Source: Williamsia muralis NBRC 105860 (GTDB lineage Bacteria > Actinomycetota > Actinomycetes > Mycobacteriales > Mycobacteriaceae). Taken from it: 64,000 nt of DNA. The position numbers and the translations under genes are program-made. The stretch spans positions 1 through 64,000 of the forward strand of contig NZ_BDAP01000002.1 of assembly GCF_001598915.1 (NCBI RefSeq). Direction: 5' to 3'. Under the pieces are notes generated by a model, which searched no databases, had not been told where the DNA came from, and saw nothing but the letters and a program-made list of their open reading frames with translations. Of this stretch, positions 3,372 to 60,217 are shown one piece after another. How positions within the stretch are numbered: position 1 is the stretch's first letter; each line of letters opens with the position of its first letter.

Positions 3372-4475
3372 TCACGCCTGGTGCACGAGTTCGGCTGCGC
3401 GTTGAGCTGCTCGTCGGCCGATTTCGGTCAGCCAGTACGACGGGGCCTTCATCGCTTGCGTTGTGGAACCTGCCATTTCCGTCAGCGAATAGGTCGGCAC
3501 GTCGATACCCGCGTCGACCTGGCCGGCAACCACTACCACCGAGACGTGGCTTTCAGCGGCGAGGGAGACGATGTGCCCAACGATCTTGCCGGTGAGCGAT
3601 GTGTGGTCGAACCTGCCCTCGCCGGTGATGATCAGATCCGCTTCCGGCGCGGCCGACGTGAGACCGGTCAGGCCGCACACCCGCGCTGCACCTGGGGTGA
3701 TCCGTGCTCGCCACGCCGCCGCCAGGCCGAATGCGACGCCCCCCGCCGCGCCCATTCCGGGCATCGACGGATCGGCAGCGAGCCCGGCGTCGGCCAACAG
3801 ATCCACCCATCGACGCAGTCCCCGGTCCAGCTCTTCAACGATCTGTGCATCGGCGCCTTTCTGTGGCCCGAACACGCTCGCCGCTCCCGCCGGACCGAAC
3901 AGCACGGCAGAGGTGTCGGCAAGCAGCTCGACGTCGGCCGGTGGACTCAGTAACGAGGACGTGTCGACACGCTCGGCCACGAGGAGACCCGCCCCGCCTT
4001 CGGGAACCGGCCTGCCCGCCCGGTCGAAGACTTCGAGGCCAAGCGCACGTAGAGCACCCAATCCTCCGTCCGTCGAGGCGGAACCGCCCAGCGCCACAGT
4101 CAGTCTCGAACAGTCGGTGCGCCGGATCACCTCGCCGAGTCCGCGAGACGTCGCGCCGAGGGGGTCGAGCCGATCGAGGTAGGCGATTCCCGACGACTCG
4201 GCGAGCTCCACCACAGCGCGACCGTCAGGCATGTTCAGCCAGCGGGCTGACACCGGACGCCCGTGGGGACCGGTTGCCGTGTCGTGGGCGGACCACGTGG
4301 CATCTCCGACCGCTTGGGCAATTACCGCCAGCGTTCCCTCACCGCCGTCAGCCTGTGGCATGAAGACGAGTTCGTCGCCCGGGCGCGCCCGGGCCCAACC
4401 TCTGCTCAAGGCCTGCGCGACGTCCACTGCGCCAAGCGACCCCTTGAACGAGTCGGGCGCGATCAGAACTCTCAT
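3372..4475 (-). CDS. Glycerate kinase (GlxK family)
   Basis: From ATG at 4475 this encodes 367 residues, the usual length of type-II glycerate kinases. The N-terminus MRVLIAPDSFKGSLGA, the segment PQADGGEGT, the Gly-rich VALGGSASTDGGLGA and the later ITGEGRFDHTSLTGKI are family hallmarks. The enzyme phosphorylates glycerate with ATP, normally giving 2-phosphoglycerate for lower glycolysis. The start overlaps the stop of the upstream TIM-barrel gene as ATGA. It is the last gene of a four-gene coupled operon, which implies that glycerate (or tartronate semialdehyde reduced to it) is an end product of the encoded pathway. Confidence 0.93.
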   Translation of the reverse strand: MRVLIAPDSFKGSLGAVDVAQALSRGWARARPGDELVFMPQADGGEGTLAVIAQAVGDATWSAHDTATGPHGRPVSARWLNMPDGRAVVELAESSGIAYLDRLDPLGATSRGLGEVIRRTDCSRLTVALGGSASTDGGLGALRALGLEVFDRAGRPVPEGGAGLLVAERVDTSSLLSPPADVELLADTSAVLFGPAGAASVFGPQKGADAQIVEELDRGLRRWVDLLADAGLAADPSMPGMGAAGGVAFGLAAAWRARITPGAARVCGLTGLTSAAPEADLIITGEGRFDHTSLTGKIVGHIVSLAAESHVSVVVVAGQVDAGIDVPTYSLTEMAGSTTQAMKAPSYWLTEIGRRAAQRAAELVHQA

Positions 4476-5338
4476 CCGGCCAGCGGCGGCAAGACGAGAT
4501 CGCGGTACCGCTGTTTCATGTTCTCGATCACCTGGTGGCCGTCGGTTGACCACACTTTCTCGTTGAAGATCTCCACTTCGACATCGCCCTGATAGCCGGC
4601 CGCTCGCACCCACGTTCCGATGGTGTCGAAATCGATGACTCCGTCACCCATCATTCCGCGCGAGAGCAAGGGGTCGGCTTCCATCGGCACCAACCAGTCA
4701 CACACCTGGTAGGAGCTGATCCTGCCCTCTTTCCCGGCCTGCCGAATCTTGTTGTACAGCTCCGGATCCCACCAGACGTGGAAGGTGTCCACAACGACTC
4801 CCACGGCTTCGACGGGGTGCGGTGATGCCATCGACAACGCCTGTCCCAGGGTGGAAATCACCGCCCGATCGGCAGCAAACATGGGATGCAACGGTTCGAG
4901 CGCGATGCGGACACCACGGTCAATCGCGTAGGGAACCAGCTGCGCCAGACGGTCTTCCACTCGCGCGCGTGCCCCGATGAGATCGCGGTCCGGCAGACCG
5001 CCCATCACCATCACCAGCTCGGGAGCCCCGAGTTCGGCGGCCTCATCGAGTGCGCGACGATTGTCGTCGAGACCGTCATCGAGCACACCGGTCATGAATC
5101 CGCCCCGACACAGACTCGACACCCGAAGGCCCGCGTCCGCAATATGCTTCGCCGAAGAGGCGAGGCCGGCCTCTTGTACCCGATCTCGCCACAGACCGAC
5201 TGCGCCGAGGCCGGCACTGGCCGCCCCGTCCACAGCTTCTGCCAATGTCCACGAGTTGACGGTCTTGGTGTTCAGAGACAGTGTCGCGTAGGGATTGTCG
5301 AGGTCGTAGGGAGATGTCTGTACGGCTGTGGTCGTCAC
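4472..5338 (-). CDS. AP2-type TIM-barrel sugar isomerase/epimerase
   Basis: The 288-residue product starting at GTG 5338 shows the xylose-isomerase-like barrel (AP_endonuc_2 family). Probable metal ligands appear in order: Glu in IALEPLHP, Asp and His in VVDTFHVWWDPE, and Glu in DVEVEIFNE near the C-terminus. Members isomerise or epimerise sugars and keto-sugars; some catalyse beta-elimination of 3-keto-glycosides when paired with Gfo/Idh/MocA dehydrogenases. The start overlaps the DUF993 stop by 4 bases (GTGA), and the stop overlaps glycerate kinase by 4. A longer in-frame N-terminus exists but lacks family similarity. Confidence 0.88.
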   Translation of the reverse strand: MTTTAVQTSPYDLDNPYATLSLNTKTVNSWTLAEAVDGAASAGLGAVGLWRDRVQEAGLASSAKHIADAGLRVSSLCRGGFMTGVLDDGLDDNRRALDEAAELGAPELVMVMGGLPDRDLIGARARVEDRLAQLVPYAIDRGVRIALEPLHPMFAADRAVISTLGQALSMASPHPVEAVGVVVDTFHVWWDPELYNKIRQAGKEGRISSYQVCDWLVPMEADPLLSRGMMGDGVIDFDTIGTWVRAAGYQGDVEVEIFNEKVWSTDGHQVIENMKQRYRDLVLPPLAG

Positions 5339-6516
5339 GATCGGACTCCGTTCAGTTCGAGGTACAGACCCATACGATGAATTGCCAGCTCCGGGTCGGT
5401 GAGCAATCCCGCCTTGTCGGCCAGGACGAACAAGGTCGTCAGATGCTCCACGCTTCTCCCGGAGGCCAGCCCGCCAACCATCGAGAACCCGGACTGTCTG
5501 CCGCGTAACCATGACAGGAACGCGATTCCGGTCTTGTAGTAGTAGGTGGGCGAAGTGAAGATATGGCGACCGAGGTCCTCGGTGGACCTCAAGATTTGTT
5601 CTGCGCGTCGGACATTCCCGCGGTCGAGCTCCTGCAGAGCGGTGGACGCTGCCGGATAGATACCCGCGAAGATGCCGAGCAAAGCGTCGGAGTGACCACG
5701 TTCGTCACCGATGATCAACCGCGGGTAGTTGAAGTCGTCGCCGGTGTACATCCGCACGTTCGGCGGTAGCGTGCGCCGGAGCGCTATCTCGTGCTGCGCA
5801 TCGAGCAAGGAGACCTTGACGCCGTCGACCTTCGTGCTGTTGGCCTCGATGAGCCCACGGAACACGGCCGTCGCCTCCTCGACGTCGTCACTGCCCCAAT
5901 AGCCTTGCAACGCAGGGTCGAACATGGTGCCGAGCCAGTGCAGTATCACCGGACAATCCACCTCGGACAGCAGCGTGGTGTACACGGATACGTAGTCGTC
6001 GGGCGATTGCGCCACCCGAGCCAGTGCCCGCGACGCCATGATGATGATCGTGGCGCCCGACTCACCGACCACGGCGATCTGTTCGCGATAGGCGTCCAGG
6101 ACTGCGGTGAGACCGGCGGCTCCCGATGGGAGAGTGTCGATGTCGAGCTGATCGGTGCCTGCACCGCATGCGAGCATGCCCCCGGCGGCGGTCGCCTCGG
6201 CACCCGACCGTCTGATCAACTCGGCAGTCGCCGACCAGTCGAGGCCCATGCCCCGCTGCGCTGTGTCCATTGCGTCAGCGACCCCGAGTCCGTACGACCA
6301 CAACTCGTGTCGATAGGAAAGCGTGGCCTCCCAGTCGATGTCGGCGGGTGCACCGGGTGTGTTGTCTGCCGTCGCGCGTGGGATCACATGGGCTGCCGCG
6401 TACACCTTGCGAGAGGTGATGGGCGATGACGGCTTCGTCCATTCCCCGGGTTCGGCGAGCACATGATTGCCCCTGCCCGGCAGAGCAATGGACAGGTGCG
6501 CATCGGTGACGGTCAC
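5335..6516 (-). CDS. DUF993 family, dihydrodipicolinate-synthase-like TIM-barrel protein
   Basis: This 393-residue protein matches my recollection of the DUF993 family, often labelled DHDPS-like, although no biochemical activity is firmly attached to it. Visible segments include WSYGLGVADAMDTAQRGMGLDW near residue 85, a barrel strand with VILHWLGTMFDPALQGYWG, a Lys-containing strand VDGVKVSLLDA (candidate Schiff-base lysine) and FTSPTYYYKTGIAFLSWLRG. GTG at 6516 overlaps the dehydrogenase stop by 4 bases. By analogy with DHDPS folds it may be an aldolase or lyase that cleaves an oxidised sugar. That is inference from fold and neighbours only. Confidence 0.8.
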   Translation of the reverse strand: MTVTDAHLSIALPGRGNHVLAEPGEWTKPSSPITSRKVYAAAHVIPRATADNTPGAPADIDWEATLSYRHELWSYGLGVADAMDTAQRGMGLDWSATAELIRRSGAEATAAGGMLACGAGTDQLDIDTLPSGAAGLTAVLDAYREQIAVVGESGATIIIMASRALARVAQSPDDYVSVYTTLLSEVDCPVILHWLGTMFDPALQGYWGSDDVEEATAVFRGLIEANSTKVDGVKVSLLDAQHEIALRRTLPPNVRMYTGDDFNYPRLIIGDERGHSDALLGIFAGIYPAASTALQELDRGNVRRAEQILRSTEDLGRHIFTSPTYYYKTGIAFLSWLRGRQSGFSMVGGLASGRSVEHLTTLFVLADKAGLLTDPELAIHRMGLYLELNGVRS

Positions 6517-7670
6517 AGCGTGATCTCCGGCACGGCGAGACGGCGGCCCTCGGCCGAGCTCCGCAGGCCGAGTTCGGCCAGTTGCACACCGCGGGCTGCC
6601 GACAACAGTCCGTACCGATGCGGACGCTCGGCGATGACGTCTCGTAAGAACTCTTCCCATTGCAGCTTGAACCCGTTGTCGAGGTCGGCATTGGCGGGCA
6701 CGTCGAGCCATTGGTCCCGGAAGGGTTCGGTCACCGGCAGGTCGGGGTTCCAGACGGGTTTGGGTGTGTGGGATCGGTGTTGGGCGACACAGTTTCGCAA
6801 TCCCGCAACAGCTGAACCATGCGTGCCGTCCACCTGGAATTCGACCAGCTCATCGCGATGAACCCGCACTGTCCACGCCGAGTTGATCTGTGCCACAACG
6901 CCGTTCTCCATCTCAAAGATTCCGTATGCGGCGTCGTCGGCAGTGGCCGGGTATTCGTTGCCGTCTTCGTCCCATCGAACGGGGACGTGGGTGACAGCTT
7001 TGGCTGTGACGGACTCGACTTTGCCGAGGATGTTCTCGAGGACGTAGTTCCAGTGACAGAACATGTCCACGACGATGCCGCCACCGTCTTCGGCACGGTA
7101 GTTCCAGCTGGGACGCTGCGCCGGTTGACCGTCGCCCTCGAACACCCAGTAGCCGAACTCGCCCCGAAGAGAGAGGATCCGTCCGAAGAATCCCTCATCG
7201 ACGAGGCGACGCAGTTTGACCAGCCCTGGGAGATAGAGCTTGTCGTGGACGACACCGGTGGTGACCCCGGCGTTCTCCCCGATACGGGCGAGTTCGACAG
7301 CCTGCGTGAGCGTCTCGGCGGTCGGCTTCTCGGTGTAGATGTGCTTGCCCGCCTTCATCGCGGCGGCCAGCGCCTCTGCCCGCCGCGACGTCACCTGGGC
7401 GTCGAAGTAGATGTCGGTGCTCGGATCGTGGATGACCGCCGATGCGTCGGTGCTGTATTCGGCGATGCCGTGCAGAGAACACAGTTCCTGCAGTTTTGCC
7501 TCGTTGCGCCCGACGAGGATCGGTTCGAGCTGGACGCGGCTACCGTCAGCCAGGAGCAGGCCGCCGGAGTCACGAATGGGAAGTATCGATCGCATGAGGT
7601 GCTGGCGGTAGCCCATGCGGCCGGTGACGCCATTCATGGCGATGCGCAGGGTACGAGTCGAGGTGGACAT
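6513..7670 (-). CDS. Gfo/Idh/MocA family NAD(P)-dependent oxidoreductase
   Basis: From ATG 7670 the 385-residue product has an N-terminal Rossmann fold (IAMNGVTGRMGYRQHL, residues 10-25). The family EKP motif is at about 114-116 (TEKPTAET), where the Lys acts in hydride transfer. The C-terminal half carries VDMFCHWNYVLE. These enzymes oxidise a sugar or sugar-acid hydroxyl, often at C3. It is the first gene of the coupled catabolic operon, so oxidation is probably the first committed step. A 14-bp LacI-type operator lies about 130 bp upstream in the region shared with the divergent repressor gene. Confidence 0.92.
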   Translation of the reverse strand: MSTSTRTLRIAMNGVTGRMGYRQHLMRSILPIRDSGGLLLADGSRVQLEPILVGRNEAKLQELCSLHGIAEYSTDASAVIHDPSTDIYFDAQVTSRRAEALAAAMKAGKHIYTEKPTAETLTQAVELARIGENAGVTTGVVHDKLYLPGLVKLRRLVDEGFFGRILSLRGEFGYWVFEGDGQPAQRPSWNYRAEDGGGIVVDMFCHWNYVLENILGKVESVTAKAVTHVPVRWDEDGNEYPATADDAAYGIFEMENGVVAQINSAWTVRVHRDELVEFQVDGTHGSAVAGLRNCVAQHRSHTPKPVWNPDLPVTEPFRDQWLDVPANADLDNGFKLQWEEFLRDVIAERPHRYGLLSAARGVQLAELGLRSSAEGRRLAVPEITL

Positions 7671-7799: not shown

Positions 7800-7813
7800 G
7801 GAATGCGCTTTCC
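7800..7813. promoter_or_regulatory. LacI-family operator, site 1
   Basis: The 14-mer GGAATGCGCTTTCC is a near-perfect palindrome around a central GCGC, the usual LacI/GalR operator shape. On the minus strand it reads GGAAAGCGCATTCC, identical to site 2 at 8977-8990. The plus-strand left flank CTCAGCTTC (7791-7799) also recurs at site 2. It lies between the divergent dehydrogenase operon and the repressor gene, so it could control both. Confidence 0.72.
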
Positions 7814-7882: not shown

Positions 7883-8920
7883 ATGGCGGCGGTGAGATTG
7901 CAGGACGTCGCGGCGGCCGCGGGCGTCTCGCAGGCAACCGCTTCGCGGGTGCTCAACGGGTCCGCACGCGTTCCCGGCGTGGGTGTTGCCGACCGTGTTC
8001 GCGCTGCCGCCGCCGAGCTGGGGTACGTCCCAAATGCGCAGGCCCAGGCGTTGGCGCGGTCATCGACCGGACTGATCGGCCTGGTGGTGCACGATGTTGC
8101 CGACCCGTACTTCTCCTCCATCGTCCGGGGCGTTCAGGCGCAGGCCCGGGCAGCAGGGAAGCTGGTGTTGCTCGCCAGCACCGAACGCGACTTCGATGTC
8201 GAGCGGCAGTCGGTCAGCACGTTCATCTCCCACCGGGCAGACGCCATCATCCTGGCTGGGTCTCGCCAGAGCGGAGACCTCGATCGCGACCTCGAGAAGG
8301 AGTTCGCGGTCTATCGCGAGAACGGCGGCAAGGTGGTCGTCATCGGCCAACCGCTGTCGTTCGGCGCCGCCGTCGAGCCTGAGAATTGGTCGGCATCAGG
8401 GCAATTGGCAGAGGCGCTCTACCAGCACGGGCATCGCACATTCGCCATCATCGGCGGGCCGGGCAACATCCGCACGTCGGTCGACCGCCGGAACGGATTC
8501 GTCGACACCTTGAGCAGACACGGGCTCAGCCCGATCATCGAAGTGTCGGGCGACTTCTCCCGAGACGGCGGCTACAGTGCGGCACGACGACTCGCCGCGG
8601 CGCTGGAAATCAGTCCGCAGAGTCCTCGAGGCCGGCCACCCTGCGTTTTCGCGGTCACCGACGTGATGGCGATAGGTGCCATCGCGGCATGGCGCGAGCT
8701 GGGACTCAGTGTGCCCGAACATGTCTGCGTGGCGGGTTTCGACGACATCCCCACCCTGCGCGATCATGTCCCCAGCCTGTCCACAGTCGCCCTGTCGTTG
8801 GTCGACATCGGCCGGCGTGCAGTGGATCTGGCTCTCGACGAAGCAGCCGCTGGGCAGTGTGCCCACGAGTTCGTTCCGGGCACCGTGATCTTGCGTCACA
8901 GCAGCGCCTTGAGCAGCTGA
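7883..8920 (+). CDS. LacI/GalR family transcriptional repressor
   Basis: The 345-residue product has an N-terminal helix-turn-helix (LQDVAAAAGVSQATASRVLNG, residues 5-25) followed by the hinge and a periplasmic-binding-like sensor domain (IGLVVHDVADPYFSSIVRG to the end). The length is normal. ATG at 7883 is preceded by AAAGGT with good spacing; an alternative ATG is at 7859. It sits between the catabolic operon (divergent) and the importer operon (same strand). Both flanks carry the same operator, so it most likely represses uptake and breakdown of one carbon source and itself. The inducer is unknown. Confidence 0.93.
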   Translation: MAAVRLQDVAAAAGVSQATASRVLNGSARVPGVGVADRVRAAAAELGYVPNAQAQALARSSTGLIGLVVHDVADPYFSSIVRGVQAQARAAGKLVLLASTERDFDVERQSVSTFISHRADAIILAGSRQSGDLDRDLEKEFAVYRENGGKVVVIGQPLSFGAAVEPENWSASGQLAEALYQHGHRTFAIIGGPGNIRTSVDRRNGFVDTLSRHGLSPIIEVSGDFSRDGGYSAARRLAAALEISPQSPRGRPPCVFAVTDVMAIGAIAAWRELGLSVPEHVCVAGFDDIPTLRDHVPSLSTVALSLVDIGRRAVDLALDEAAAGQCAHEFVPGTVILRHSSALSS

Positions 8921-8976: not shown

Positions 8977-8990
8977 GGAAAGCGCATTCC
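8977..8990. promoter_or_regulatory. LacI-family operator, site 2
   Basis: GGAAAGCGCATTCC is the exact reverse complement of site 1 at 7800-7813. Across the 23 bases 8968-8990 versus 7791-7813 only two positions differ, and those two changes preserve the palindrome. It lies between the repressor stop and the importer permease start, so the importer should be under the same repressor. Confidence 0.72.
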
Positions 8991-9032: not shown

Positions 9033-9908
9033 ATGGCGGTAACAACGTCGGTCGAGATCCGTTCTGCTGCGTTGCAGGCGTCACCCCTCACGCCGACGCG
9101 TCACCGACGGTTTCCCTCGTTCCGAAATACTTGGTCCGGCCTTTGGCGGCCGCTCGCCCTGGTAGCGGTGCTCGTCGCCGCCTGGTGGGCGGTGACCAAG
9201 TTCGAACTGGTTGCGCCGTACATCCTTCCGTCACCGGGCGACACCTGGCAGACGATGGTGGACAACGCTTCGTACCTCACCACCCACACCTGGGTCACCA
9301 CCTACGAAACCGTCGCCGGCTTCCTCATCGCCGCCGTGATCGGCGAAGCAGTCGCGGTGATGATGCTCTACTCTCCGAGCGTCGAGAAGACGATGTACCC
9401 TCTGATCCTCTTCGCACAGGTCATCCCGAAGATCGCGATCGCACCGCTGTTCGTGGTGTGGCTCGGCTTCGGACCCAGCCCCAAAATCCTTGTCGCCGTG
9501 CTGATGGCGTTCTTCCCCATCGTCATCTCCGGGATGGCCGGTCTGCGCTCGGTGGACCCGGAGATCGTCGAGCTCACCTCCACGATGGGCGCCGGACGCT
9601 GGAAGACCTTCGCCAAGGTGCGCTTTCCTGCCTCTCTTCCACAGCTCTTGTCCGGACTGAAGATCGCTGCGACGCTCGCCGTCACCGGCGCCGTGGTCGG
9701 CGAGTTCGTGGGGGCCAACGAGGGTCTGGGCTACGTAATCTTGCAGGCCAACGGAAACATCGACACCGCAATGCTGTTCGCGGCGCTGATCATCATGTCG
9801 CTGCTCGGGATCATCCTGTTCATGATCATCGAGCTCGCCGAGAAGCTGCTCATCCCATGGCATGCCTCACGCCGATCTACCGCCTCTGTCGGCGCGTCGG
9901 CCGTCTGA
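9033..9908 (+). CDS. NitT/TauT-type ABC transporter permease
   Basis: This 291-residue integral membrane protein has about six helices and the BPD_transp_1 EAA loop (ELTSTMGAGRWKTFAKVRFPASLPQLLSGLKIA, about residues 185-217). The order of genes, permease then binding protein then ATPase, matches SsuABC/TauABC/ThiXYZ-like importers. The ATG lies at the edge of TTAGGACTCCTAA (9021-9033), which contains the only nearby Shine-Dalgarno-like AGGA. Expression is probably controlled through the operator at 8977. Confidence 0.92.
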   Translation: MAVTTSVEIRSAALQASPLTPTRHRRFPSFRNTWSGLWRPLALVAVLVAAWWAVTKFELVAPYILPSPGDTWQTMVDNASYLTTHTWVTTYETVAGFLIAAVIGEAVAVMMLYSPSVEKTMYPLILFAQVIPKIAIAPLFVVWLGFGPSPKILVAVLMAFFPIVISGMAGLRSVDPEIVELTSTMGAGRWKTFAKVRFPASLPQLLSGLKIAATLAVTGAVVGEFVGANEGLGYVILQANGNIDTAMLFAALIIMSLLGIILFMIIELAEKLLIPWHASRRSTASVGASAV

Positions 9909-9940
9909 AACACTCGAACCTCACTCAACGGAGATTGAAC

Positions 9941-10963
9941 ATGAAACTGAAAACCCTTGTGGTCGCGGCCATTGCGATGACACTCGCGCTCGCCGGCTGC
10001 GGTGGTGGAGCCGCGGAGAAGAAGCCCGGCGCCGACGGCCAGGCCACCGCGACATCGCTGATGCTCAACTGGTACCCCTACGGCGAGCATGCTCCGTTCT
10101 ATTACGGGGTGCAGGAGGGCATTTTCGCCAAACACGGAATCGACCTCACGATCAAGGCCGGGCAGGGATCGACCAAGACCGCGCAGGCCGCCGGTTCGAA
10201 CCAGACCGACTTCGGCTGGGCCGACACCCCTGCCGTGGTGAGCAACATCGGCAAGGGCGTCAAGATCAAGAGCGTCGGGGTGTTCTTGCAGACAACGCCA
10301 TCGGCGGTGCAGGTCTACGCCGATTCCGGCATCACGAAACCAGCCGACCTGGCCGGCAAGACCATCGCAGTCTCGGCAGGCGACGCCCCGACCACCACGT
10401 TCCCGATCTACCTCGAAAAGGCCGGCGTGCCCGCCGATCAGGTGAAGCAACAGAGCCTCGACGCCGCCGGCAAGGTCGCGGCCATGTTGTCAGGAAAGGT
10501 CGACGGGCTCATCGGATTCGCACATGACCAGGGCCCGACCATCGCCAACAAGAGCGGGCGTGACATGCGTTACCTCCGCTATTCCGATGTGGGCCTGAAC
10601 TTTTACAGCAACGGCCTGATCGCCAACAACGGAATGATCGAGAGCTCACCCGAGCTGGTGCAGGCAATGGTCGACGCCACCAGCGAAGCCTTCACCGCCG
10701 CCGCGGCCAATCCCGAGGCGGCAGTGGCCGCGATGGAGGGCAAGGATCCCCAGATGCCGCCGAAGGAAGTTCTGCTGCAGCAGTGGACGGAAACCATTCC
10801 GCTGCTCTCGACCGCCGGCACCAAAGGTGAGGCACCCGGAGTGAACACCGACGAAGACTGGGCCGCGACGATCGCTGTGCTGAGCGACTCCGGTCTACTC
10901 GAGAACGCCGGCGAACCCTCGCAGTACTGGGATTCGGCCTTCACCCCCACCGATACCAAGTGA
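9941..10963 (+). CDS. NMT1/THI5-like ABC substrate-binding lipoprotein
   Basis: The 340-residue product begins with a lipoprotein signal: Lys residues, a hydrophobic core and a lipobox LALAGC with Cys20 as the lipidation site. The mature part (LNWYPYGEHAPFYYGVQEGIFAKHGIDL) is typical of NMT1/SsuA-type solute-binding proteins, which bind thiamine precursors, alkanesulfonates, taurine or aromatic acids. A GGAG ribosome binding site precedes ATG 9941. It feeds the permease encoded just upstream. The ligand cannot be inferred, although the regulon suggests a carbon source. Confidence 0.92.
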   Translation: MKLKTLVVAAIAMTLALAGCGGGAAEKKPGADGQATATSLMLNWYPYGEHAPFYYGVQEGIFAKHGIDLTIKAGQGSTKTAQAAGSNQTDFGWADTPAVVSNIGKGVKIKSVGVFLQTTPSAVQVYADSGITKPADLAGKTIAVSAGDAPTTTFPIYLEKAGVPADQVKQQSLDAAGKVAAMLSGKVDGLIGFAHDQGPTIANKSGRDMRYLRYSDVGLNFYSNGLIANNGMIESSPELVQAMVDATSEAFTAAAANPEAAVAAMEGKDPQMPPKEVLLQQWTETIPLLSTAGTKGEAPGVNTDEDWAATIAVLSDSGLLENAGEPSQYWDSAFTPTDTK

Positions 10964-10973
10964 GTGAGCGACG

Positions 10974-11783
10974 ATGAATGCCACGACGATCGAACCCCCG
11001 AACACCGTGACCGATTCCGCAGTATCCGTCGAGAACTTGAGCGTGCACTTCTCCTCCAAGCGCGGTGAGGTCACCGCACTCGACGACGTGCAGTTGCACG
11101 TGCGTGAAGGCGAGTTCGTCACGATCGCCGGACCGTCCGGTTGCGGAAAGTCGACGTTGCTGAAAGTGGTTGCGGGACTTACCAACGCATCTCACGGCAG
11201 TGTGCGGCTGCGCGGCAGCGAGGTCAAAGGCCCGCAGAGGGGCATCGGCTATGTCTTCCAGCGAGCGGCCCTTCTCGAGTGGCGGACCGTTCGCAAGAAC
11301 ATCTTGATCCAGGCCGAGATGCGCGGCATGAACAAACGCGCTGCCGCGGCGAAAGCGGATCAGCTGATCGAGATGACCGGACTCACCGGTTTCGAGGGCG
11401 CACTCCCCCATGAGTTGTCCGGTGGTATGCAGCAACGCGTCTCCCTGTGCCGGGCGCTGTTGCACGAGCCCGAGGTGCTGCTGATGGACGAACCCTTCGG
11501 TGCGTTGGATGCGCTCACTCGTGAGCGGATGAACGTCGAACTCCATCGGATCTGGCGGGAGACCGGCACCACCGTGATGCTTGTGACCCACTCGGTCGCC
11601 GAAGCGGTGTATCTCGCGAATCGAGTGGTGGTGATGAGTCCGCGGCCCGGTCGCATCGTGGAGATCCTCGACGTCGACCTTCCGGCGGAGCGCGACTACA
11701 GCGCAACCATGGAACGACCCGAGTTCATCGCGGTCGCCAACCGGGTACGCGACCTCCTCGGGGCAACAACCAGCGCCGATTGA
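10974..11783 (+). CDS. NitT/TauT-type ABC importer ATPase
   Basis: This 269-residue ATPase carries Walker A (GPSGCGKST, about 51-59), a Q-loop in YVFQRAALLEWRTVRKN, signature LSGGMQQRVSLCRAL, Walker B VLLMDEPFGALDALT and an H-loop in LVTHSVAEAVYLANRV. These are standard for the SsuB/TauB group. It begins ten bases after the binding-protein stop and completes the importer. A strong GC-rich hairpin follows the stop and probably ends the transcript. Confidence 0.94.
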   Translation: MNATTIEPPNTVTDSAVSVENLSVHFSSKRGEVTALDDVQLHVREGEFVTIAGPSGCGKSTLLKVVAGLTNASHGSVRLRGSEVKGPQRGIGYVFQRAALLEWRTVRKNILIQAEMRGMNKRAAAAKADQLIEMTGLTGFEGALPHELSGGMQQRVSLCRALLHEPEVLLMDEPFGALDALTRERMNVELHRIWRETGTTVMLVTHSVAEAVYLANRVVVMSPRPGRIVEILDVDLPAERDYSATMERPEFIAVANRVRDLLGATTSAD

Positions 11784-14421: not shown

Positions 14422-15813
14422 ATGCCCGACGAGAGCAGCGCGGTTGTATTCGTTCTATTCGGTGCCACAGGCGATCTCGCCAAACGCATGGTGTTGCCGT
14501 CCTTTTACGAGTTGGCCCGCGAAGGGTTGCTCCCCGAGACGTGGGCGCTGATCGGCAACGGGCGCGGCCATCGCTCCGACGACGAGTTCCGCGACCACGT
14601 GCGGCAGTCGGTCACGACGTTCGATGCGGCACCCGACGAGACCCAGTGGGCCGATTTCGCGAAGAACGTCCGATTCGCCGGAGGTGGTTTCTCCGTGGAC
14701 GACCCGGGCGATCTGCCAAGCGTCATCGACGACCTCCGCGGACAACTCGGCGGCGAAGTCCAATTGGTCCACTACATCGCGCTGCCGCCCACGACCTTCT
14801 CCGACTACACCGCCGCCCTCGGGGCACACGGTCTCGCCGACGGCGCACGCGTGGTGTACGAAAAGCCTTTCGGCACTTCACCGGACGACTTCCGGAAGCT
14901 CGATGTCGCCGTACACGACGTGTTCGACGAGAAGCAGGTCTACCGGATCGACCACTTCCTGGGTAAAGAGAGCACCCAGAACCTGCATGTACTCCGGTTC
15001 GCCAACGGCATGGTGTCCGGCGTGTGGAACCGGGAGCACGTCGAGCAGGTCCAGATCGACATTCCCGAGACGTTGGACATCGACGACCGGGCGGTCTTCT
15101 ACGACGCCACCGGGGCGTTCCTCGACATGGTGGTGACACACCTGTTCCAGGTCGCCGCGGAGGTGGCGATGGAGCCGCCGCTGAGCCTGGACGCCGACGA
15201 TCTGCAGGGCGCCCGCGAGTCGGTGATCGCCGCCTTCCGCCCGCTTGATCCGGCCGAGGTGGTCTACGGCCAATACGAAGGTTTCCGGGACACCGAAGGC
15301 ATTGCCGACGACTCGCAGACAGAGACATTTGTGGCGGCCCGCATGTGGGTCGACACCGACCGCTGGCGTGGAGTGCCATTCGTGATGCGCACGGGCAAGA
15401 TGCTCAACCGCAGTGCCCAGCGGGTGAGCCTCGTGTTCCGTCGCCCTGACGGGCCGATCAAACATCTCCCACCGGAGGGCACCGTGCTCACCTTCGACCT
15501 CAAGGGGGACGGGTCGATCGACATGGCGATGACCGTGAAAGAACCGGGCTCGGGCACTTCCCTGTCCGTCGGGCACATGTCGCTCCCCCTCGACAGCGTC
15601 GCCGACGGCCTCGCCCCGTACTCACGGCTGATCCTCGACGTCTTACGCGGTGACCGCTCCCTGTTCACCAGGCCGGACGGTCTGGCACACGTCTGGGAGG
15701 TCGCGGCCCCTGTTCTCGACAATCCTCCTGTGCCACAGCCTTATTCCCCGGGGTCGGTAGGTCCGGGTGCTGCTGACCGACTCGTCGGACCCTGCGGGTG
15801 GATCTTCGACTGA
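14422..15813 (+). CDS. zwf: Glucose-6-phosphate dehydrogenase
   Basis: The 463-residue protein has the nucleotide-binding GATGDLAKR (14-22), EKPFG (147-151), the substrate motif RIDHFLGK (175-182) and the catalytic-His region FLDMVVTHLFQ (His240). It oxidises glucose-6-phosphate to 6-phosphogluconolactone with NADP or NAD, entering the pentose phosphate pathway. No opcA, tal, tkt or pgl gene is beside it, so this is a stand-alone copy. It resembles in length the mycobacterial second paralogue (zwf1 type, about 466 residues) rather than the larger operon-encoded form. A hairpin follows the gene. Confidence 0.93.
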   Translation: MPDESSAVVFVLFGATGDLAKRMVLPSFYELAREGLLPETWALIGNGRGHRSDDEFRDHVRQSVTTFDAAPDETQWADFAKNVRFAGGGFSVDDPGDLPSVIDDLRGQLGGEVQLVHYIALPPTTFSDYTAALGAHGLADGARVVYEKPFGTSPDDFRKLDVAVHDVFDEKQVYRIDHFLGKESTQNLHVLRFANGMVSGVWNREHVEQVQIDIPETLDIDDRAVFYDATGAFLDMVVTHLFQVAAEVAMEPPLSLDADDLQGARESVIAAFRPLDPAEVVYGQYEGFRDTEGIADDSQTETFVAARMWVDTDRWRGVPFVMRTGKMLNRSAQRVSLVFRRPDGPIKHLPPEGTVLTFDLKGDGSIDMAMTVKEPGSGTSLSVGHMSLPLDSVADGLAPYSRLILDVLRGDRSLFTRPDGLAHVWEVAAPVLDNPPVPQPYSPGSVGPGAADRLVGPCGWIFD

Positions 15814-53798: not shown

Positions 53799-55181
53799 GT
53801 GGGGATTCTGCAAAGAATCGAACGCAAACTCGAAGGTGCGGTAGATGACGGCTTCGCCCGGGTCTTCGGCGGCAAGGTCGCCCCGCAAGAGGTCGAGAAC
53901 GCTCTGCAACGCGAAGCCGAAGACAACTTGGAAGACCTCGGCGACGGCGGCAAGCTCGCCCCGAACGCCTACAACCTGGTGGTCAGCTCCACTGACCACC
54001 GCGAGATGGTTGCCGAGTACGAGCTCAACCGGAAGACCTTCTCCAAGCATCTCGAGAATTTCATCCGTGACAACGGATGGCAGACATACGGTGACGTGGT
54101 GGTCGAGTTCTCCCACTCACCCACCCTGCACACCGGTCAGTTCCGGGCGCGGGGCACGGTCAATCCGGACGTCCGGCCGATGCCTGTGCAACAAGCAGGC
54201 CATCGTCCTCCAGATCAATCAGGGCCGCCGTTGCCCCATCCGCCGCCCGCGGCGCCAAACCGAAACCCACAAGTAGGAGCCACTCCCATGACGCAGAACT
54301 CCGGATACGACCCCCGCGGAGGTTACGAACAGGGCTCCTACCCACCGCAGGCGGCCTACAGCCAGCAGCCCTACGAACAGGGCCAGGACAACTCCGGCGA
54401 CGGTGCGCAGGCGTACAGCCAGCAGGGTGGCTACGACCAGCAGGGCTACAACCAGGCCGGCTACGACCAGCAGGGTTACGACCAGCGTGGCTATGACCAA
54501 CGCGGTTACGACCAGCACGGTGGTTACGACCAGGCCGGGTACGACCAGGGCGCGTACCAGCAGGGCGGCCACGACCAGCAGGGCTACAACCAGGGTGGGT
54601 ACGCCCAGCCGTCGGCCAACCCGGAGCAGGGCTACGACCCGCGCAACTACCAGCAGGGTTACGACCAGGGCGGCTACCAGCAGCCCGCGTACGACCAGCA
54701 GGGTTACGACCAGGGCGGCTATCAGCAGCCCGGGTACAGCCAGAACGAGTACGACCAGCAGGGTGCCTACAACCAGCAGGCCGGCTACGCGCAGGGGTAC
54801 CCGCAACAGGGCGGGTACGACCAGCAGGGCGGCTACGACCAGCAGGCCGGTTACGCCCAGGCTCCCGGCTACGGCGCTCCCGCCGCGTACGCACCGACGG
54901 CGATCACGCTGCTGCTCGAAGACGGCAGCAACCGCACGTTCCAGCTGCGCAACGGCTCGAATGTCATCGGCCGCGGCCAGGACGCCCAGTTCCGCCTGCC
55001 CGACACCGGTGTTTCCCGTCGCCACGTCGAAATCCGCTGGGACGGCTCGAGCGCCCTTCTCAACGACCTCAACTCCACAAACGGCACCACGGTCAACGAT
55101 GTCCAGGTCAGCAGCTGGGAACTCGCAGACGGTGACCGGATCCGCGTGGGGCATTCGGACATCACCGTCCGTTTCCAGTGA
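53799..55181 (+). CDS. fhaA: FhaA: DUF3662 and FHA domain protein with Tyr/Gln/Gly-rich repeat
   Basis: The 460-residue protein starts at GTG 53799. It has an N-terminal DUF3662 domain (1-115: [23 protein letters not shown]) and a low-complexity repeat region (about 170-362) rich in Tyr, Gln, Gly and Asp. A C-terminal FHA domain (368-460) carries GRGQD, SRRHVEI and NSTNG, the phosphothreonine-binding residues. In mycobacteria FhaA binds phosphorylated MviN and PknB-family targets and regulates peptidoglycan synthesis at poles and septa. It heads the kinase/cell-shape cluster, 157 bp before fhaB. Confidence 0.95.
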
Positions 55182-55338
55182 CGCCCGCACAAACCGTCAC
55201 TACCCAGTAGCGCGCTCCCTCGATCCGCGTGGCTCACAGCTGCTCGATGCACAAGTGAGACATCCGAATGCGTGATGGAGCGACACTGGGCCATAAGATG
55301 CACTGGACGTTGATGGCTGGCCCAGGAGGTGGAAAAGC

Positions 55339-55803
55339 GTGCAGGGCATAGTGCTGCAACTGACGCGTGTCGGCTTCTTGCTGCTGCTGTGGCTCCTGGT
55401 GTGGGCAGTACTGCGGGTCATCCGCACCGATGTGTACGCCGCCACCGGCCAACGACCCATGACGCGATACGAACGCCGCAACCGCGGCGGGTCCCCCGCC
55501 AAGGTCAAAGGCGGGGCCAGATATCTCGTGGTCACCCATGGGGCCCTGGCCAACACGAGGATCACGCTCGGCACCCAACCGGTGTTGCTCGGCCGCGCCG
55601 ACGACTCGACCCTGGTTCTCACCGACGAGTACGCCTCGGAGCGCCACGCCCGGCTGATCCGCCGGGGAGATGACTGGTATGTCGAAGACCTCGGCTCCAC
55701 CAACGGCACCTATCTCGACCGTGCGAAGGTCACCACCGCTGTGCGCGTGCCGCTCGCAACTCCGGTCAGGGTGGGCAAAACCGTGATTGAGTTGCGCCCG
55801 TGA
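55339..55803 (+). CDS. fhaB: FhaB (FipA-like) FHA-domain membrane protein
   Basis: The 154-residue protein begins at GTG 55339 with AGGAGGT upstream. One membrane helix (LTRVGFLLLLWLLVWAVLRVI, residues 8-28) precedes an FHA domain (about 70-154) with LLGRADDSTLVL, SERHARL and LGSTNGTYLD. In mycobacteria this protein recognises PknA/PknB-phosphorylated partners and helps septation under stress. Its stop overlaps pstP by 4 bases (GTGA). Confidence 0.94.
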   Translation: MQGIVLQLTRVGFLLLLWLLVWAVLRVIRTDVYAATGQRPMTRYERRNRGGSPAKVKGGARYLVVTHGALANTRITLGTQPVLLGRADDSTLVLTDEYASERHARLIRRGDDWYVEDLGSTNGTYLDRAKVTTAVRVPLATPVRVGKTVIELRP

Positions 55804-57287
55804 CCCTGGTGTTGCGCTATATCGCGCGTAGCGACCGCGGCTTGGTCCGTGCGAACAACGAAGACTCCGTGTACGCCGGTGCCCGATTGCTGGCCCTTGC
55901 CGACGGCATGGGCGGCCACGCAGCCGGTGAGGTGGCCAGCCAGCTGGTCATCCAGGCACTACGTCCCCTCGACGACGACGAGCCCGGCGGCGACCTCCTG
56001 GCGAAACTCGAAGAGGCCACCCGCCATGGCAACGAGGCGATAGCCGACCAGGTTGCCGAGGCCCCCGAACTCGACGGCATGGGCACCACCCTCACCGCCA
56101 TCCTCTTCGCGGGCTCGCGCCTGGGTCTGTGCCACATCGGCGATTCGCGCGGCTATCTGCTGCGCGATGGCCAGCTCACCCAGATCACCCGCGACGACAC
56201 GTTCGTTCAGACCCTTGTCGAAGAAGGCCGGATCACGGCCGAAGAAGCACACACACATCCGCAACGGTCGTTGATCATGCGTGCGCTCACTGGTACCGAG
56301 GTCGAGCCCACGCTGACGGTGCGCGAAGCCCGCGCCGGCGACCGCTATCTCCTGTGCAGTGACGGCCTGTCCGACGTGGTCAGCGAAGAGACCATCGCCG
56401 ACACCATGACGTCGGTGGAGAACTACCGCGACTGCGCCGACCGGCTCATCGAGCTGGCCCTGCGTGGCGGTGGCCCCGACAACGTCACCGTTGTGGTCGC
56501 CGACGTCGTCGATGTGGATTACGGCGACAGCCAGCCCATCGTCGGTGGCGCGGCCGGAGGCGACGACCAGGAGTACGTTCCCGATCCGCGTACCTCGGCC
56601 GGTCGTGCGGCGGCGCTGCGCCCGCCTGCCCAGTCGCCCCGGCGGCCGACCATCGGAACCCCCGAACCCGAACCGCCGCAAGCACACCCGCGGCGTAAAT
56701 GGATTCTCGGTGGGATCGCTCTCGCCGTGATCGCCGTCCTCATCGCCGGTGTCTTCGTGGGCCGGGCGATCGTCCGTTCGAACTATTACGTCAGCGCCGA
56801 CAACGGCGAGGTGGTGCTCTACCGCGGATTGCAGGGGTCATTCCTGGGCTTGAGCCTGCACGAGCTGAGCAAGATCACCTGCACCGGAGCCATGGACACC
56901 GACAGGCCGACGGTCACCATCGCCGACTACAACAATCGTCCCGAGAACTGCGTACCCCTGAAGGTGTCCGACCTCACCGGCACGGCGCCCGCCTCGCTCG
57001 AAGGCCGCGACCCGGTGCCTCTCGACGATGCCGAGGAACAGGTCCGCAACCTGATGGACAACCTCGTGCCGTTGTGTCCTGAAGAGGAGTCCGCCTCGGC
57101 CGAGGGCGTCACCCCGGGTCCGGCCCAGCCCGTCGCGCCGGGTACCGAGAGTCCTGTACCGCCGCCGGCAACACCGGGACAGCCCGCGCCGGTGCTCCCG
57201 CAGTCGGGCAGTGCCAGCACGCAGCCTCCGCTGACGTCCACCACCACGCCGCCCGTCACGGCCCCGGAAAACTGTCGGGGGCGCTGA
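55800..57287 (+). CDS. pstP: PstP: PP2C-family Ser/Thr phosphatase
   Basis: The 495-residue protein has an N-terminal PP2C domain (1-235). Its metal-binding acidic residues appear in [33 protein letters not shown] and [10 protein letters not shown] Pro-rich juxtamembrane stretch follows, then one membrane helix ([21 protein letters not shown], about 301-321), an extracytoplasmic domain of about 120 residues and a Pro/Thr-rich tail. It reverses PknA/PknB phosphorylation. It overlaps fhaB upstream and shares one base with rodA downstream. Confidence 0.95.
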
Positions 57288-58714
57288 TGTCACAGGCCGC
57301 CGTCACACAGACACCGGCTTCCGGGCCGATCCGCAACTACACAGGCCGCAACTCCGAACTGGTGTTGCTCGGCCTGTCGACGATCATCGTCTTCACCGCG
57401 CTCATCCTGGTCGAGGCTGCGCAGTCGCAGAGCATCACCTGGGAACTGGCCAAGTACATGGCCGCCTACGTCCTGCTCTACGGTTTCGCCCACCTCGTCG
57501 TACGGCGATTCGCGCCCTACGCCGATCCGCTGATCCTGCCGCTGGTGGCCACCATCAACGGTCTCGGGCTCGTCCTGATCCATCGCCTCGACCTCGGAAC
57601 CGGTCAGAACGGTGAGACCGCCAACCCCATCGACCGCACCAACGACGCCGATCAGCAGGTTCTGTGGGCGGTCCTCGGCATCATCGCGTTCGCGGCCATC
57701 CTGATCCTGATCCGCGACCACCGGACGCTGTCGCGGTACAGCTACCTGCTGGGCCTGAGCGGTCTGGTCTTCCTGGCCATCCCGGCGATCCTGCCGTCGT
57801 CGATGTCGGAGATCAACGGTTCCAAGATCTGGATTCGCACCCCGCTGTTCAACATCCAGCCAGGCGAGTTCTCGAAGATCCTGATCATCATCTTCACCGC
57901 GTCGTTGCTGGTGTCCAAGCGTGATCTGTTCACCACCGCGGGTAAGCATTTCCTCGGTATGGACCTGCCCCGCGCTCGCGACCTCGGCCCGCTGCTCGCC
58001 GCGTGGATCATCTCCATCGGCGTCCTGGCGTTCGAGGCCGACCTCGGCACCTCTCTCCTGATCTTCTCGACCATGCTGGTGATGCTGTACGTGGCGACCG
58101 AGCGGGTGAGCTGGCTGATCATCGGCGTCAGCCTGTTCGCCCTGGGCGCACTGGTCGCCTACCAGCTGTTCTCGCATCTGCAGGTGCGTGTCGCGGTGTG
58201 GCAGGACCCGTTCAGCGACTTCTACGGCCAGGGCTACCAAGTCGGCCAGAGCCTGTTCGGTCTGGCCACCGGCGGTCTGTTCGGCACCGGTCTGGGTTCC
58301 GGCCGGCCCAACATCGTGCCGTTTGCCAACACCGACTTCATCATCGCCACCATCGGCGAAGAGCTCGGCCTGGTGGGGCTCGCGGCGATCCTGCTGCTGT
58401 ATTTGGTGTTGATCGTCCGCGGTCTGCGCACCGGCATCGCCGTTCGTGACAGCTTCGGCAAGCTCCTCGCCACCGGGTTGTCGTTCACGATCGCGGTGCA
58501 GATCTTCGTGGTGGTCGGCGGCGTGACCAAGCTGATCCCGCTGACCGGCCTGACCACACCGTTCATGTCCTACGGCGGTTCATCACTGCTGGCGAACTAC
58601 ATCCTGGTCGCGTTGCTCATCCGCGTGTCCAACGCCGCACGTGAGCCCGATCCGACCAAGAAGAAGTCGACGCCCATCGCCGATGCGCCCACCGAGATGG
58701 TCAAGCGCTCATGA
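57287..58714 (+). CDS. rodA: RodA: SEDS-family peptidoglycan glycosyltransferase
   Basis: The 475-residue protein has the SEDS plan of ten or more membrane helices. Family segments are present: [37 protein letters not shown] (the Asp of the catalytic loop region), and the C-terminal [24 protein letters not shown]. RodA polymerises lipid II and works with the class B penicillin-binding protein encoded next. Translation is linked to pstP (TGATG) and to pbpA (ATGA overlap). Confidence 0.95.
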
Positions 58715-60213
58715 ACATTCCCATTCGCCGCGTGGTCATCGCGGTCATGGTGATCATCCTCGTGCTGCTCGCCAACGCCACCTACGTGCAGGTGTTCAAA
58801 GCCGACAACCTGCGGGCCGACCCACGCAATCAGAGGGTGCTCCTCGACGAGTACTCGCGTCAGCGCGGCCAGATCACCGCCGGCCAGGACGTGATCGCGC
58901 AGTCGGTGCCCACCGATGACCGGCTCAAGTACCTGCGCACCTATCCGGGACCGTGGGCGCCTGCCTTTGCACCGGTCACCGGTTACTACTCGTTCCAGTA
59001 CGCGAGTTCGGGACTCGAGCAGGCCGAGGATTCCATCCTCAACGGCAACGACGACCGGCTGTTCGGACAGCGTTTCGCCGACATGTTCTCCGGTCGTGAT
59101 CCACGCGGGGGCAATGTGATCACCACCATCGACCCGCGGGCGCAACAGATCGCCTTCGACGAGATGAACAAGGGCTGCAACGGCGGTTGCCGCGGAGCCG
59201 TGGTGGCCCTGGCACCGAACACCGGCGCGATCCTGGCGATGGTGTCCACGCCGAGTTACGACCCCAACCTGCTGGCCAGCCACGACACCACCGTCCGTGA
59301 AGACGCCTGGGCCGCGTGGAATCCCACCGAGGATTCAACCGGGTTCCAGCCCATGCTCAACCGGGCCCTCAACGAGACCTACCCACCTGGTTCGACGTTC
59401 AAGGTGATCACCGCTGCCGCTGCGCTCGAGCAGGGCATCGGCCAAGACGAACGCCTTACGGCGGCAAGCAGTTACACGCTGCCGCAGACCGAAACCGGAC
59501 TGACCAACTACGGCGGTCAGACCTGTCCAGACTCCAGCGGTGGCCAGGTGACGATGCATCAGGCCCTCGAATACTCGTGCAACACAGCGTTTGTGCAACT
59601 GTCCACCGAGAAACTGCAGAACCCGATCGAAGCGGTCAAGAACCAGGCCAACGCTTTCGGTGTCGACACCGAACTACCCGACACCCCGCTGCCCGTCTCC
59701 GAATCGTCGGTCGGCCCGATCCCTGACCTCGCCGCTCTCGGCCAGAGCTCCATCGGCCAACGTGATGTGCGGTTCACCCCACTACAGAACGCGATGATCG
59801 CCGCGACCATCGCCAACGGTGGGGTTCGCATGCAGCCGTACCTCGTGGACAAGTTGCAGGGTCCGGACCTCAAGACCCTGAACACCACCCGGCCCAACTC
59901 GCTCAACGAGCCGATCAGCGCTCAGACCGCCGCGACCCTGACCGAGATGATGATCGACTCCGAACGCAACACCCGCGGATCCGGCGGGCCGGTGTCGATC
60001 GCATCGAAGACCGGCACCGCCGAGCACTCCAACACCCAAGGCACCGATGAGACCCCCTACGCCTGGTACATCGCGTTCGGTCCGTCGAGCAATGCCAAGG
60101 TGGCGGTGGCGGTGATCGTCGAGAACGGCGACGGCGGACTACAGGCAACGGGCGGCTCGTCAGCCGCCCCTATCGGGCGTGCCGTGATCAACGCGCTCGC
60201 AGGTGAGAGGTGA
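58711..60213 (+). CDS. pbpA: PbpA: class B penicillin-binding protein (transpeptidase)
   Basis: The 500-residue protein has an N-terminal membrane anchor ([22 protein letters not shown]), a dimerisation domain and a transpeptidase domain. The active-site motifs are SxxK (STFK, Ser228-Lys231), SxN (SCN, 289-291) and KTG (433-435). It cross-links peptidoglycan and is paired with RodA; in mycobacteria it is a PknB substrate required for septation. It overlaps rodA by 4 bases and is followed by pknA after 4 bases. Confidence 0.95.
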
Positions 60214-60217
60214 CCGG

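What the first reader, a model, noticed from the sequence alone, without database searches (positions are those of the whole stretch)
3372..7670. Four-gene coupled operon around DUF993 may encode an undescribed sugar-acid or glycoside breakdown route
The sequence shows Gfo/Idh/MocA dehydrogenase, DUF993, AP2-type TIM-barrel protein and glycerate kinase, each overlapping the next by 4 bases. Known chemistry: Gfo enzymes oxidise sugars often at C3, AP2 proteins isomerise or beta-eliminate keto-sugars, DHDPS-like folds do aldol or retro-aldol reactions, and glycerate kinase feeds 2-phosphoglycerate to glycolysis. Inference: an oxidise, rearrange, cleave, phosphorylate scheme in which DUF993 is the cleaving enzyme and glycerate is one product. 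DUF993 has no firmly known activity that I am aware of.
Basis: partly seen in the sequence, partly recalled or inferred. Interest (0 to 1): 0.75.

Follow-up and report, generated by a model that had tools for sequence, protein, structure and literature searches.

The report
Sugar-acid operon with uncharacterised aldolase-like enzyme
A soil-type actinobacterium carries a tightly controlled set of genes that probably imports an unknown sugar acid, oxidises it, splits it with an aldolase-like enzyme of unknown function, and feeds a three-carbon piece (glycerate) into central metabolism.

Summary
In detail: Gfo/Idh/MocA, DUF993, AP2-type and glycerate kinase (GK) genes lie on the - strand at 7670-3372 with three 4-base overlaps. 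The near-constant unit is dehydrogenase-DUF993-AP2; GK is an accessory (6 of 20 sampled regions), yet linked well above chance, in three positions within one regulon, and drawn from two different kinase families. Glycerate is therefore a likely product. DUF993 is a distant DHDPS-superfamily member (hhalign 93.7%, E 1.8e-7; ten control families at most 0.5%). It keeps the Schiff-base lysine (K234, 80 of 80), but the catalytic tyrosine is histidine (H193, 80 of 80) and the loop GTTGE reads DTAQR. New here: a LacI-type operator, GGAAAGCGCATTCC, has exactly two exact copies in the 5.5-Mb genome, one before this operon, one before an NMT1-type ABC importer. In 61 genomes of the family it occurs in 4 of 6 with DUF993 and 0 of 55 without. 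In some relatives the trio adjoins genes resembling a uronate/aldarate module (most names below curated cut-offs). Most likely: a divergent class I aldolase pathway for a polyhydroxy acid. Substrate and cleavage chemistry remain unproven.

The parts
6513..7670 (-). Gfo/Idh/MocA dehydrogenase; first gene of the operon
   Evidence: Pfam PF22725/PF02894/PF01408; best solved chain 3oqb; 75% identical to the pAO1 Gfo
5335..6516 (-). DUF993 protein, divergent DHDPS-superfamily enzyme; GTG start overlaps gfo stop by 4 bases
   Evidence: PF06187 581.5 bits; solved relative 4dnh; hhalign to DHDPS family 93.7%
5815..5817 (-). codon of K234, aligned to the DapA Schiff-base lysine; Lys in 80 of 80
   Evidence: role of the DapA residue is recalled
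5938..5940 (-). codon of H193, aligned to the DapA catalytic tyrosine; His in 80 of 80
   Evidence: role of the DapA residue is recalled
4472..5338 (-). AP2-type (xylose-isomerase-like) TIM barrel; GTG start overlaps by 4 bases
   Evidence: PF01261 101.3 bits; 7vpf, 3ju2, 3qc0 are close solved chains
3372..4475 (-). glycerate kinase, PF02595/TIGR00045; ATG start overlaps by 4 bases
7800..7813 (-). LacI-type operator GGAAAGCGCATTCC in front of the catabolic operon
   Evidence: one of exactly two exact copies in the whole genome; within the window only these two sites match at <=2 mismatches (each counted on both strands: 4 matches, 0.29 expected)
7883..8920 (+). LacI-family regulator, divergent
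   Evidence: PF00356, PF13377
8977..8990 (+). second exact copy of the operator, in front of the ABC importer
9033..9908 (+). ABC permease (SsuC/TauC-like)
   Evidence: PF00528; NCBIfam hits all below cut-off
9941..10963 (+). NMT1/SsuA-like substrate-binding protein
   Evidence: PF09084 156.7 bits
10974..11783 (+). ABC ATPase
   Evidence: PF00005

Best explanation
A LacI-controlled, two-operon catabolic regulon for a small polyhydroxy acid. The NMT1-type ABC importer takes up the acid. Gfo oxidises a secondary hydroxyl to a ketone; the AP2 enzyme moves or epimerises the carbonyl; DUF993, a divergent lysine (class I) enzyme of the DHDPS superfamily, forms a Schiff base through K234 and splits a C-C bond; a three-carbon fragment is, or becomes, D-glycerate; GK makes 2-phosphoglycerate. 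Shown here: gene order, homology, conserved lysine, shared operator, repeated linkage of GK. Inferred: that the LacI protein binds this operator, that the substrate is an acid, the order of steps, the C-C cleavage. Specific guess (low confidence): a ketohexonate is cleaved without prior dehydration to C3 + C3 (e.g. hydroxypyruvate + glyceraldehyde, or tartronate semialdehyde + dihydroxyacetone).
For: DUF993-DHDPS homology with K234 on the Schiff lysine, ten control families <=0.5%. Gfo-DUF993-AP2 in 20 of 20 regions from a phylum sample; GK in 6 of those 20. Of 9 DUF993 genomes that were also scanned for PF02595, GK lies within 10 kb in 4 (a fifth, G013, has only a 6.7-kb contig there). GK follows AP2 in the window, L147, L146, L046 and L063, follows the importer ATPase on the same strand in L029 and L142, and follows lacI in L048. 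Two GK families, PF02595 and DUF4147+MOFRL. Operator: two exact copies in the genome, one before each operon; in 61 family genomes present in 4 of 6 with DUF993 and 0 of 55 without, always as two copies 1.15-1.19 kb apart. Acid-leaning neighbours: tripartite tricarboxylate transporters, metabolite/H+ symporter-like proteins with the operator (below cut-off), acid-sugar dehydratase-like proteins. L148/L149: trio, KdgD-like, dehydratase-like, aldehyde dehydrogenase and GK in a row.
Against: DUF993 has His for the catalytic Tyr and DTAQR for GTTGE, so it may not be a 2-keto-acid aldolase at all. 14 of 20 regions show no linked GK. Sugar-type ABC transporters occur too (RbsA-like in 4 of 20). Clusters with KAR-type SDR, CoA-transferase and acyl-CoA dehydrogenase (10, 9 and 8 of 22 plasmid loci) suggest other chemistry elsewhere. 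The operator is not general: exact (A/T allowed at two positions) before Gfo in 3 of 20 phylum regions and 0 of 9 plasmid loci with Gfo; two DUF993 genomes of the own family lack it (G511, G515). At one mismatch the genome has two further sites elsewhere, as many as the reversed control pattern has in all. The pAO1 Gfo (75% identical) is, from recall, reported as a xylose-preferring dehydrogenase. No structure model could be made.
Confidence: 0.5

Rival explanations
1. DUF993 uses its lysine for dehydration or isomerisation, as KdgD does in the same superfamily, and the trio turns an unusual sugar acid into a common one (aldonate, uronate or aldarate); glycerate comes from a later step.
For: A KdgD-like gene and a talarate/galactarate dehydratase-like gene follow the trio directly in L081 and L089 and, with further genes, in L148 and L149; parts of the module lie in the same 20 kb in L042, L049, L050, L061 and L152. 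In L049 the exact operator lies between the ABC permease and the dehydratase-like gene, in L050 before the dehydratase-like gene.
Against: Where KdgD is present it is a separate canonical DHDPS protein, so DUF993 is not needed for that step; several loci show no same-strand gene close behind AP2.
Confidence: 0.22
2. DUF993 is a C-C hydrolase or ring opener acting on a keto-cyclitol after one or two oxidations, as in the Thermotoga inositol route (recalled: IolG, IolM, IolN, IolO).
For: AP2 of L148 scores best, though weakly, to IolO 5-keto-L-gluconate epimerase (38.8 bits, cut-off 300); the second Gfo of L148 scores best to iolG (85.8 bits, cut-off 355).
Against: All scores far below cut-offs; the window's own AP2 scores best to QuiC (32.6) rather than IolO (24.6).
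Confidence: 0.12
3. An oxidative D-xylose route as proposed for plasmid pAO1 (Mihasan 2013: only its title seen, as a reference in PMC6305408; content recalled: ORF40 = sugar dehydrogenase preferring D-xylose, ORF39 = aldehyde dehydrogenase).
For: A xylose-isomerase-like gene (cluster c16, named by eye) lies near the trio in 9 loci.
Against: The pAO1 cluster has no adjacent AP2; a C5 route gives no obvious glycerate; in vitro preference may be promiscuity; the paper is not held.
Confidence: 0.1
4. GK is a bystander caught in the operon by chance and says nothing about the products.
For: Not seen in 14 of 20 regions.
Against: Two GK families, three positions inside one regulon, linkage far over the chance of about 0.5% per locus that I estimate.
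Confidence: 0.06

Closest known systems
DHDPS/NAL superfamily (DapA, KdgD, N-acetylneuraminate lyase, KDG aldolase)
   Same: Profile homology over 226 columns, Schiff-base lysine, GDD/GED motif and C-terminal region
   Different: Catalytic Tyr is His; GTTGE is DTAQR; 393 against 301 residues for the DapA compared; no activity known
Deoxyribonate oxidation pathway (PMC6365646: parts 1 and 2 of 8, plus passages)
   Same: Oxidise a hydroxy acid to a keto acid, cleave C-C, recover glycerate with glycerate kinase
   Different: [quoted passage not shown] other enzyme families
Galactarate/glucarate pathway of E. coli (recalled: GarD, GarL, GarR, GarK)
   Same: Acid-sugar substrate, aldol cleavage, PF02595 glycerate kinase at the end
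   Different: The window operon has none of these but a kinase; here oxidation would precede cleavage instead of dehydration
Levoglucosan pathway LgdA-LgdB1-LgdC (PMC10066097: abstract and passages)
   Same: Gfo dehydrogenase plus AP2-type enzyme acting on a keto sugar
   Different: Gfo scores 72.8 against a cut-off of 650; the word dihydrodipicolinate does not occur in that text; product is glucose
SMc04130-SMc04133 region of Sinorhizobium meliloti
   Same: The AP2 relative 3ju2 is named SMc04130; SMc04132 and SMc04133 stand together with negative values in a table of a PhaR study (PMC12542648, one passage). That 4dnh is SMc04132 is recall.
   Different: No function assigned in the passage seen

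Membership tests
DHDPS/NAL superfamily class I aldolase | detectable sequence-profile homology | tested here: met
   hhalign Prob 93.7%, E 1.8e-7 with 80 and 68 non-redundant sequences; ten control families <=0.5%. A first, shallow comparison gave only 2.6%
DHDPS/NAL superfamily class I aldolase | Schiff-base lysine | tested here: met
   K234 aligned to DapA K172; Lys in 80 of 80 DUF993 and 68 of 68 DHDPS rows
DHDPS/NAL superfamily class I aldolase | catalytic tyrosine | tested here: not met
   H193 in 80 of 80; Tyr in 68 of 68 DHDPS rows
DHDPS/NAL superfamily class I aldolase | carboxylate-binding loop GTTGE (role recalled) | tested here: not met
   D84-T85-A86-Q87-R88; of the loop only the first Thr is kept
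DHDPS/NAL superfamily class I aldolase | aldolase activity | not testable with these tools
   needs purified enzyme
Gfo/Idh/MocA dehydrogenase | Rossmann and C-terminal domains, EKP lysine, D-x-x-x-H pair (motif recalled) | tested here: met
   Pfam; K115, D202, H206 invariant in 15 aligned
AP2/IolI-type isomerase | metal ligands E, D, H, E (recalled) | tested here: inconclusive
   E148, D184, E254 and E256 in 75 of 75; the putative third ligand position 211 is Gln in 53 and His in 22
Glycerate kinase (TIGR00045/PF02595) | score over curated cut-off | tested here: met
   285.7 against 168.45
Levoglucosan pathway | LgdA over its curated cut-off | tested here: not met
   72.8 against 650
Oxidative xylose pathway of pAO1 | Gfo is the xylose dehydrogenase, substrate xylose | tested here: inconclusive
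   75% identity; source paper not held

The most novel reading that the evidence does not exclude
DUF993 is a new class I aldolase type, with His in place of the DHDPS tyrosine and a rebuilt carboxylate loop, that cleaves ketoaldonates without prior dehydration into two three-carbon pieces, both convertible to glycerate. With its Gfo and AP2 partners it forms an unrecognised, widespread non-phosphorylating sugar-acid pathway, a counterpart to the Entner-Doudoroff routes, found from actinobacteria to rhizobia.
Probability: 0.2. Interest if true: 0.8.

Novelty: new variant of a known kind. Interest (0 to 1): 0.6.

Why it matters
DUF993 is a whole Pfam family without a function, found in 24 of 296 genomes of the phylum sample and in 147 plasmid records, 93 of them Sinorhizobium, Rhizobium or Ensifer. 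Three of the four window proteins already have close relatives with solved structures, so an assignment would explain those too. The regulon found here gives a direct handle: one putative regulator, one operator, one importer, so the substrate can be sought by binding assays. If DUF993 cleaves C-C bonds with a His/Lys pair, it widens the chemistry of a textbook enzyme superfamily.

Tried and rejected
Rejected: 'four-gene constant set' (GK is accessory). Rejected: levoglucosan pathway (score far below cut-off). Rejected as evidence: the first shallow profile comparison (2.6%), replaced by deeper alignments. The inverted-repeat finder reported no pair at the operator; a palindrome script found it. 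Literature: locus tags SMc04129-04133 gave one paper, SMa1398-1410 one unrelated paper, pathway words none, a mixed query mostly noise.

Dropped rows: of the 24 DUF993 genomes, the 20 regions exclude G000 (the window), G013 (short contig), G227 (contig edge) and G294 (weak match). L059 fell out of the counts because its ORF was assigned to Gfo. The 80 loci are the best of 590 or more relatives, so they lean to close kin. Family labels rest on phmmer scores with thresholds I chose. The random windows are not limited to intergenic DNA.

Not settled: loci with acid-type importers mostly seemed to lack GMC and aldehyde dehydrogenase genes (seen by eye), with exceptions (L115, L142); I did not count or test this.
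Full report
WHAT IS THERE. On the - strand the window holds Gfo (7670-6513), DUF993 (6516-5335), AP2 (5338-4472) and glycerate kinase (4475-3372), with overlaps GTGA, GTGA and ATGA. Pfam and NCBIfam confirm the families. Upstream and divergent lies a LacI-family gene (7883-8920), followed on the same strand by an ABC importer with an NMT1/SsuA-type binding protein (9033-11783). Three of the four proteins have close solved relatives: 4dnh for DUF993, 3oqb for Gfo, 7vpf/3ju2/3qc0 for AP2. No paper of the library holds the word DUF993; none of the 20 papers listed of 31 holds PF06187.

HOW CONSTANT IS THE SET. DUF993 occurs in 24 of 296 genomes of the phylum sample, in 2 of 199 of the phylum of a Paenibacillus genome, in 6 of 61 of the window's own family, of the 4 genomes of its own genus in that sample only in the window's own, and in 147 plasmid records, mostly rhizobial. 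In 20 regions taken from the phylum sample Gfo and AP2 adjoin DUF993 in 20 of 20, a LacI-type gene lies somewhere in the 20-kb region in 20 of 20 and a PF02595 kinase in 6 of 20 (dropped genomes are listed under Tried and rejected). In a wider, less even set of 102 loci, AP2 is within 8 kb in 98, Gfo in 88, a kinase in 14. In the 22 plasmid loci of that set, mostly proteobacterial, Gfo is present in 9, AP2 in 19 and a KAR-type SDR in 10; one has a shikimate-DH-like protein (L109). So the near-constant unit is 'a dehydrogenase + DUF993 + AP2'. GK is an optional partner.

WHY GLYCERATE IS STILL A GOOD BET. First, chance: 85 of 119 genomes carry PF02595, mostly one or two copies, so a kinase within 10 kb is expected in roughly 0.5% of loci (my estimate); it is seen in 6 of 20 regions, and in 4 of the 9 DUF993 genomes present in both. 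Second, in some lineages the kinase is PF02595, in others DUF4147+MOFRL (four proteins tested; 8 and 6 loci by similarity); that these two families are unrelated is recall. Third, it changes place but stays in the regulon: after AP2 in the window, L147, L146, L046 and L063; behind the importer ATPase on the same strand in L029 and L142; behind lacI in L048.

THE REGULON. A palindrome script found GGAAAGCGCATTCC between lacI and gfo and again between lacI and the importer. In the whole 5.54-Mb genome it has exactly two exact copies, at 7800-7813 and 8977-8990, each reading in the direction of its operon; at one mismatch there are two more sites elsewhere, and the reversed control pattern also has two. 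Of 61 genomes of the same family 4 have it, each with exactly two copies 1.15-1.19 kb apart; the control has 1 hit in all 61. The same 61 were then scanned for DUF993: 6 have it, among them the 4; so the operator is in 4 of 6 with DUF993 (not in G511 and G515) and in 0 of 55 without. In 19 further genomes holding DUF993 loci, 18 have one or two exact copies, 26 in all; by their coordinates 25 lie in the DUF993 loci I hold, and the last (L246) precedes a second, pAO1-like Gfo followed by a DUF993 start. With A/T allowed at two positions it lies in front of Gfo in 36 of 80 loci of the best-match set, 3 of 20 of the phylum set and 0 of 9 plasmid loci with Gfo, against 7 of 4525 random windows; loci of other lineages presumably use other sites. 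Other genes with the site: the promoter between ABC permease and dehydratase-like gene of L049, the dehydratase-like gene of L050, a Gfo-type gene (c28) and a metabolite/H+ symporter-like gene in L054, the symporter-like gene of L057 (one mismatch), and a second AP2-like gene (c23, named by eye) in L032 (exact) and L035-L037, L039 (one mismatch). That the adjacent LacI protein is the binder is inference.

WHAT DUF993 IS. With shallow alignments the link to DHDPS was not significant (2.6%). With 80 non-redundant DUF993 and 68 DHDPS sequences hhalign gives 93.7%, E 1.8e-7 over 226 columns. Ten other families from the same loci, among them the AP2 barrel, give at most 0.5%. K234 falls on the DapA Schiff lysine and is Lys in 80 of 80; H193 falls on the catalytic tyrosine and is His in 80 of 80; GTTGE becomes DTAQR; GDD falls on GED. 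So the enzyme can probably form an imine, but perhaps not with a plain pyruvate-like substrate held in the usual way. The structure prediction could not be run.

WHAT THE NEIGHBOURS SAY. In L148 and L149 one strand carries, in order, a second Gfo, Gfo, DUF993, AP2, a nucleotide-sugar-epimerase-like protein that I read as uronate-dehydrogenase-like, a KdgD-like protein, a talarate/galactarate dehydratase-like protein, an aldehyde dehydrogenase and GK. In L148 only two names are over a curated cut-off: NF002958 5-dehydro-4-deoxyglucarate dehydratase subfamily (374.6 against 278; the KdgD equivalog TIGR03249 is missed, 270.7 against 373.95) and glycerate kinase (290.9 against 168.45). Parts of this module recur in L042, L049, L050, L061, L081, L089 and L152. 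Transporters differ by lineage: NMT1 ABC, sugar ABC, tripartite tricarboxylate, metabolite/H+ symporter-like. The plasmid pAO1 has GMC-AldH-Gfo-DUF993-GK with a Gfo 75% identical to the window's. Several rhizobial and other proteobacterial clusters add CoA-transferase, acyl-CoA dehydrogenase, enoyl-CoA hydratase or ETF. These facts favour a polyhydroxy acid or its sugar precursor as the substrate of the actinobacterial clusters, but do not name it.

MECHANISM. Best reading: import, oxidation by Gfo, carbonyl shift or epimerisation by AP2, imine-assisted C-C cleavage by DUF993, glycerate, 2-phosphoglycerate. The closest studied logic is deoxyribonate oxidation, where a keto acid is thought to be cleaved and glycerate kinase matters in four bacteria (PMC6365646), with other cleaving enzymes. 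A Gfo plus AP2 pair acts on keto sugars in levoglucosan breakdown (PMC10066097, passages), and an IolO-type enzyme epimerises 5-keto-L-gluconate (PMC12632266, passages).

VERDICT. Observation confirmed; interpretation partly supported and extended by a regulon and by remote homology. Substrate and reaction unproven. New variant of a known kind, interest 0.6.

Noticed in passing
L132:8833-10020 (Streptomyces sp. NBC_00557 plasmid): A DUF993 gene sits directly before a type I polyketide synthase, near SDR, AMP-binding and acyltransferase genes: DUF993 may also have a biosynthetic use.
   Followed up: no
window 4472-5338 (AP2), residue Q211: The putative third metal-ligand position of the AP2 partner is Gln in 53 and His in 22 of 75 non-redundant sequences.
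   Followed up: partly
L071:7036-8169, L095:3480-5507, L108:4604-6598: DUF2264 (PF10022) occurs beside DUF993 in these three loci.
   Followed up: no
L050:12202-14328; also L042, L049, L054, L057, L148-L150: A Gfo domain fused to DUF6807 in L050; DUF6807-like matches recur near the trio in the other loci.
   Followed up: partly
L135 (G000:C9): The window's own genome has a KdgD-type, a dehydratase-type and an aldehyde dehydrogenase-like gene together elsewhere (named by eye apart from PF00701), with no operator copy at up to one mismatch on that contig.
   Followed up: partly
G008:C1:379764-380957: DUF993 matches in three separate pieces, so the frame looks broken or mis-sequenced; left as is.
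   Followed up: no
L123 (CP090106.1:3671495-3672637): Sinorhizobium meliloti Ak57 pSymB has a second DUF993 copy.
   Followed up: no
G503, G531, G548 (same genus): Of the four genomes of the window's genus in the sample only the window's own has DUF993 and the operator: patchy, perhaps horizontally gained.
   Followed up: no
window 53799-63504: By eye, an FHA/PstP/RodA/PbpA/serine-threonine kinase cluster like the one near the origin of mycobacteria (naming recalled).
   Followed up: no
window 14422-15813: By eye, a glucose-6-phosphate dehydrogenase-like protein.
   Followed up: no
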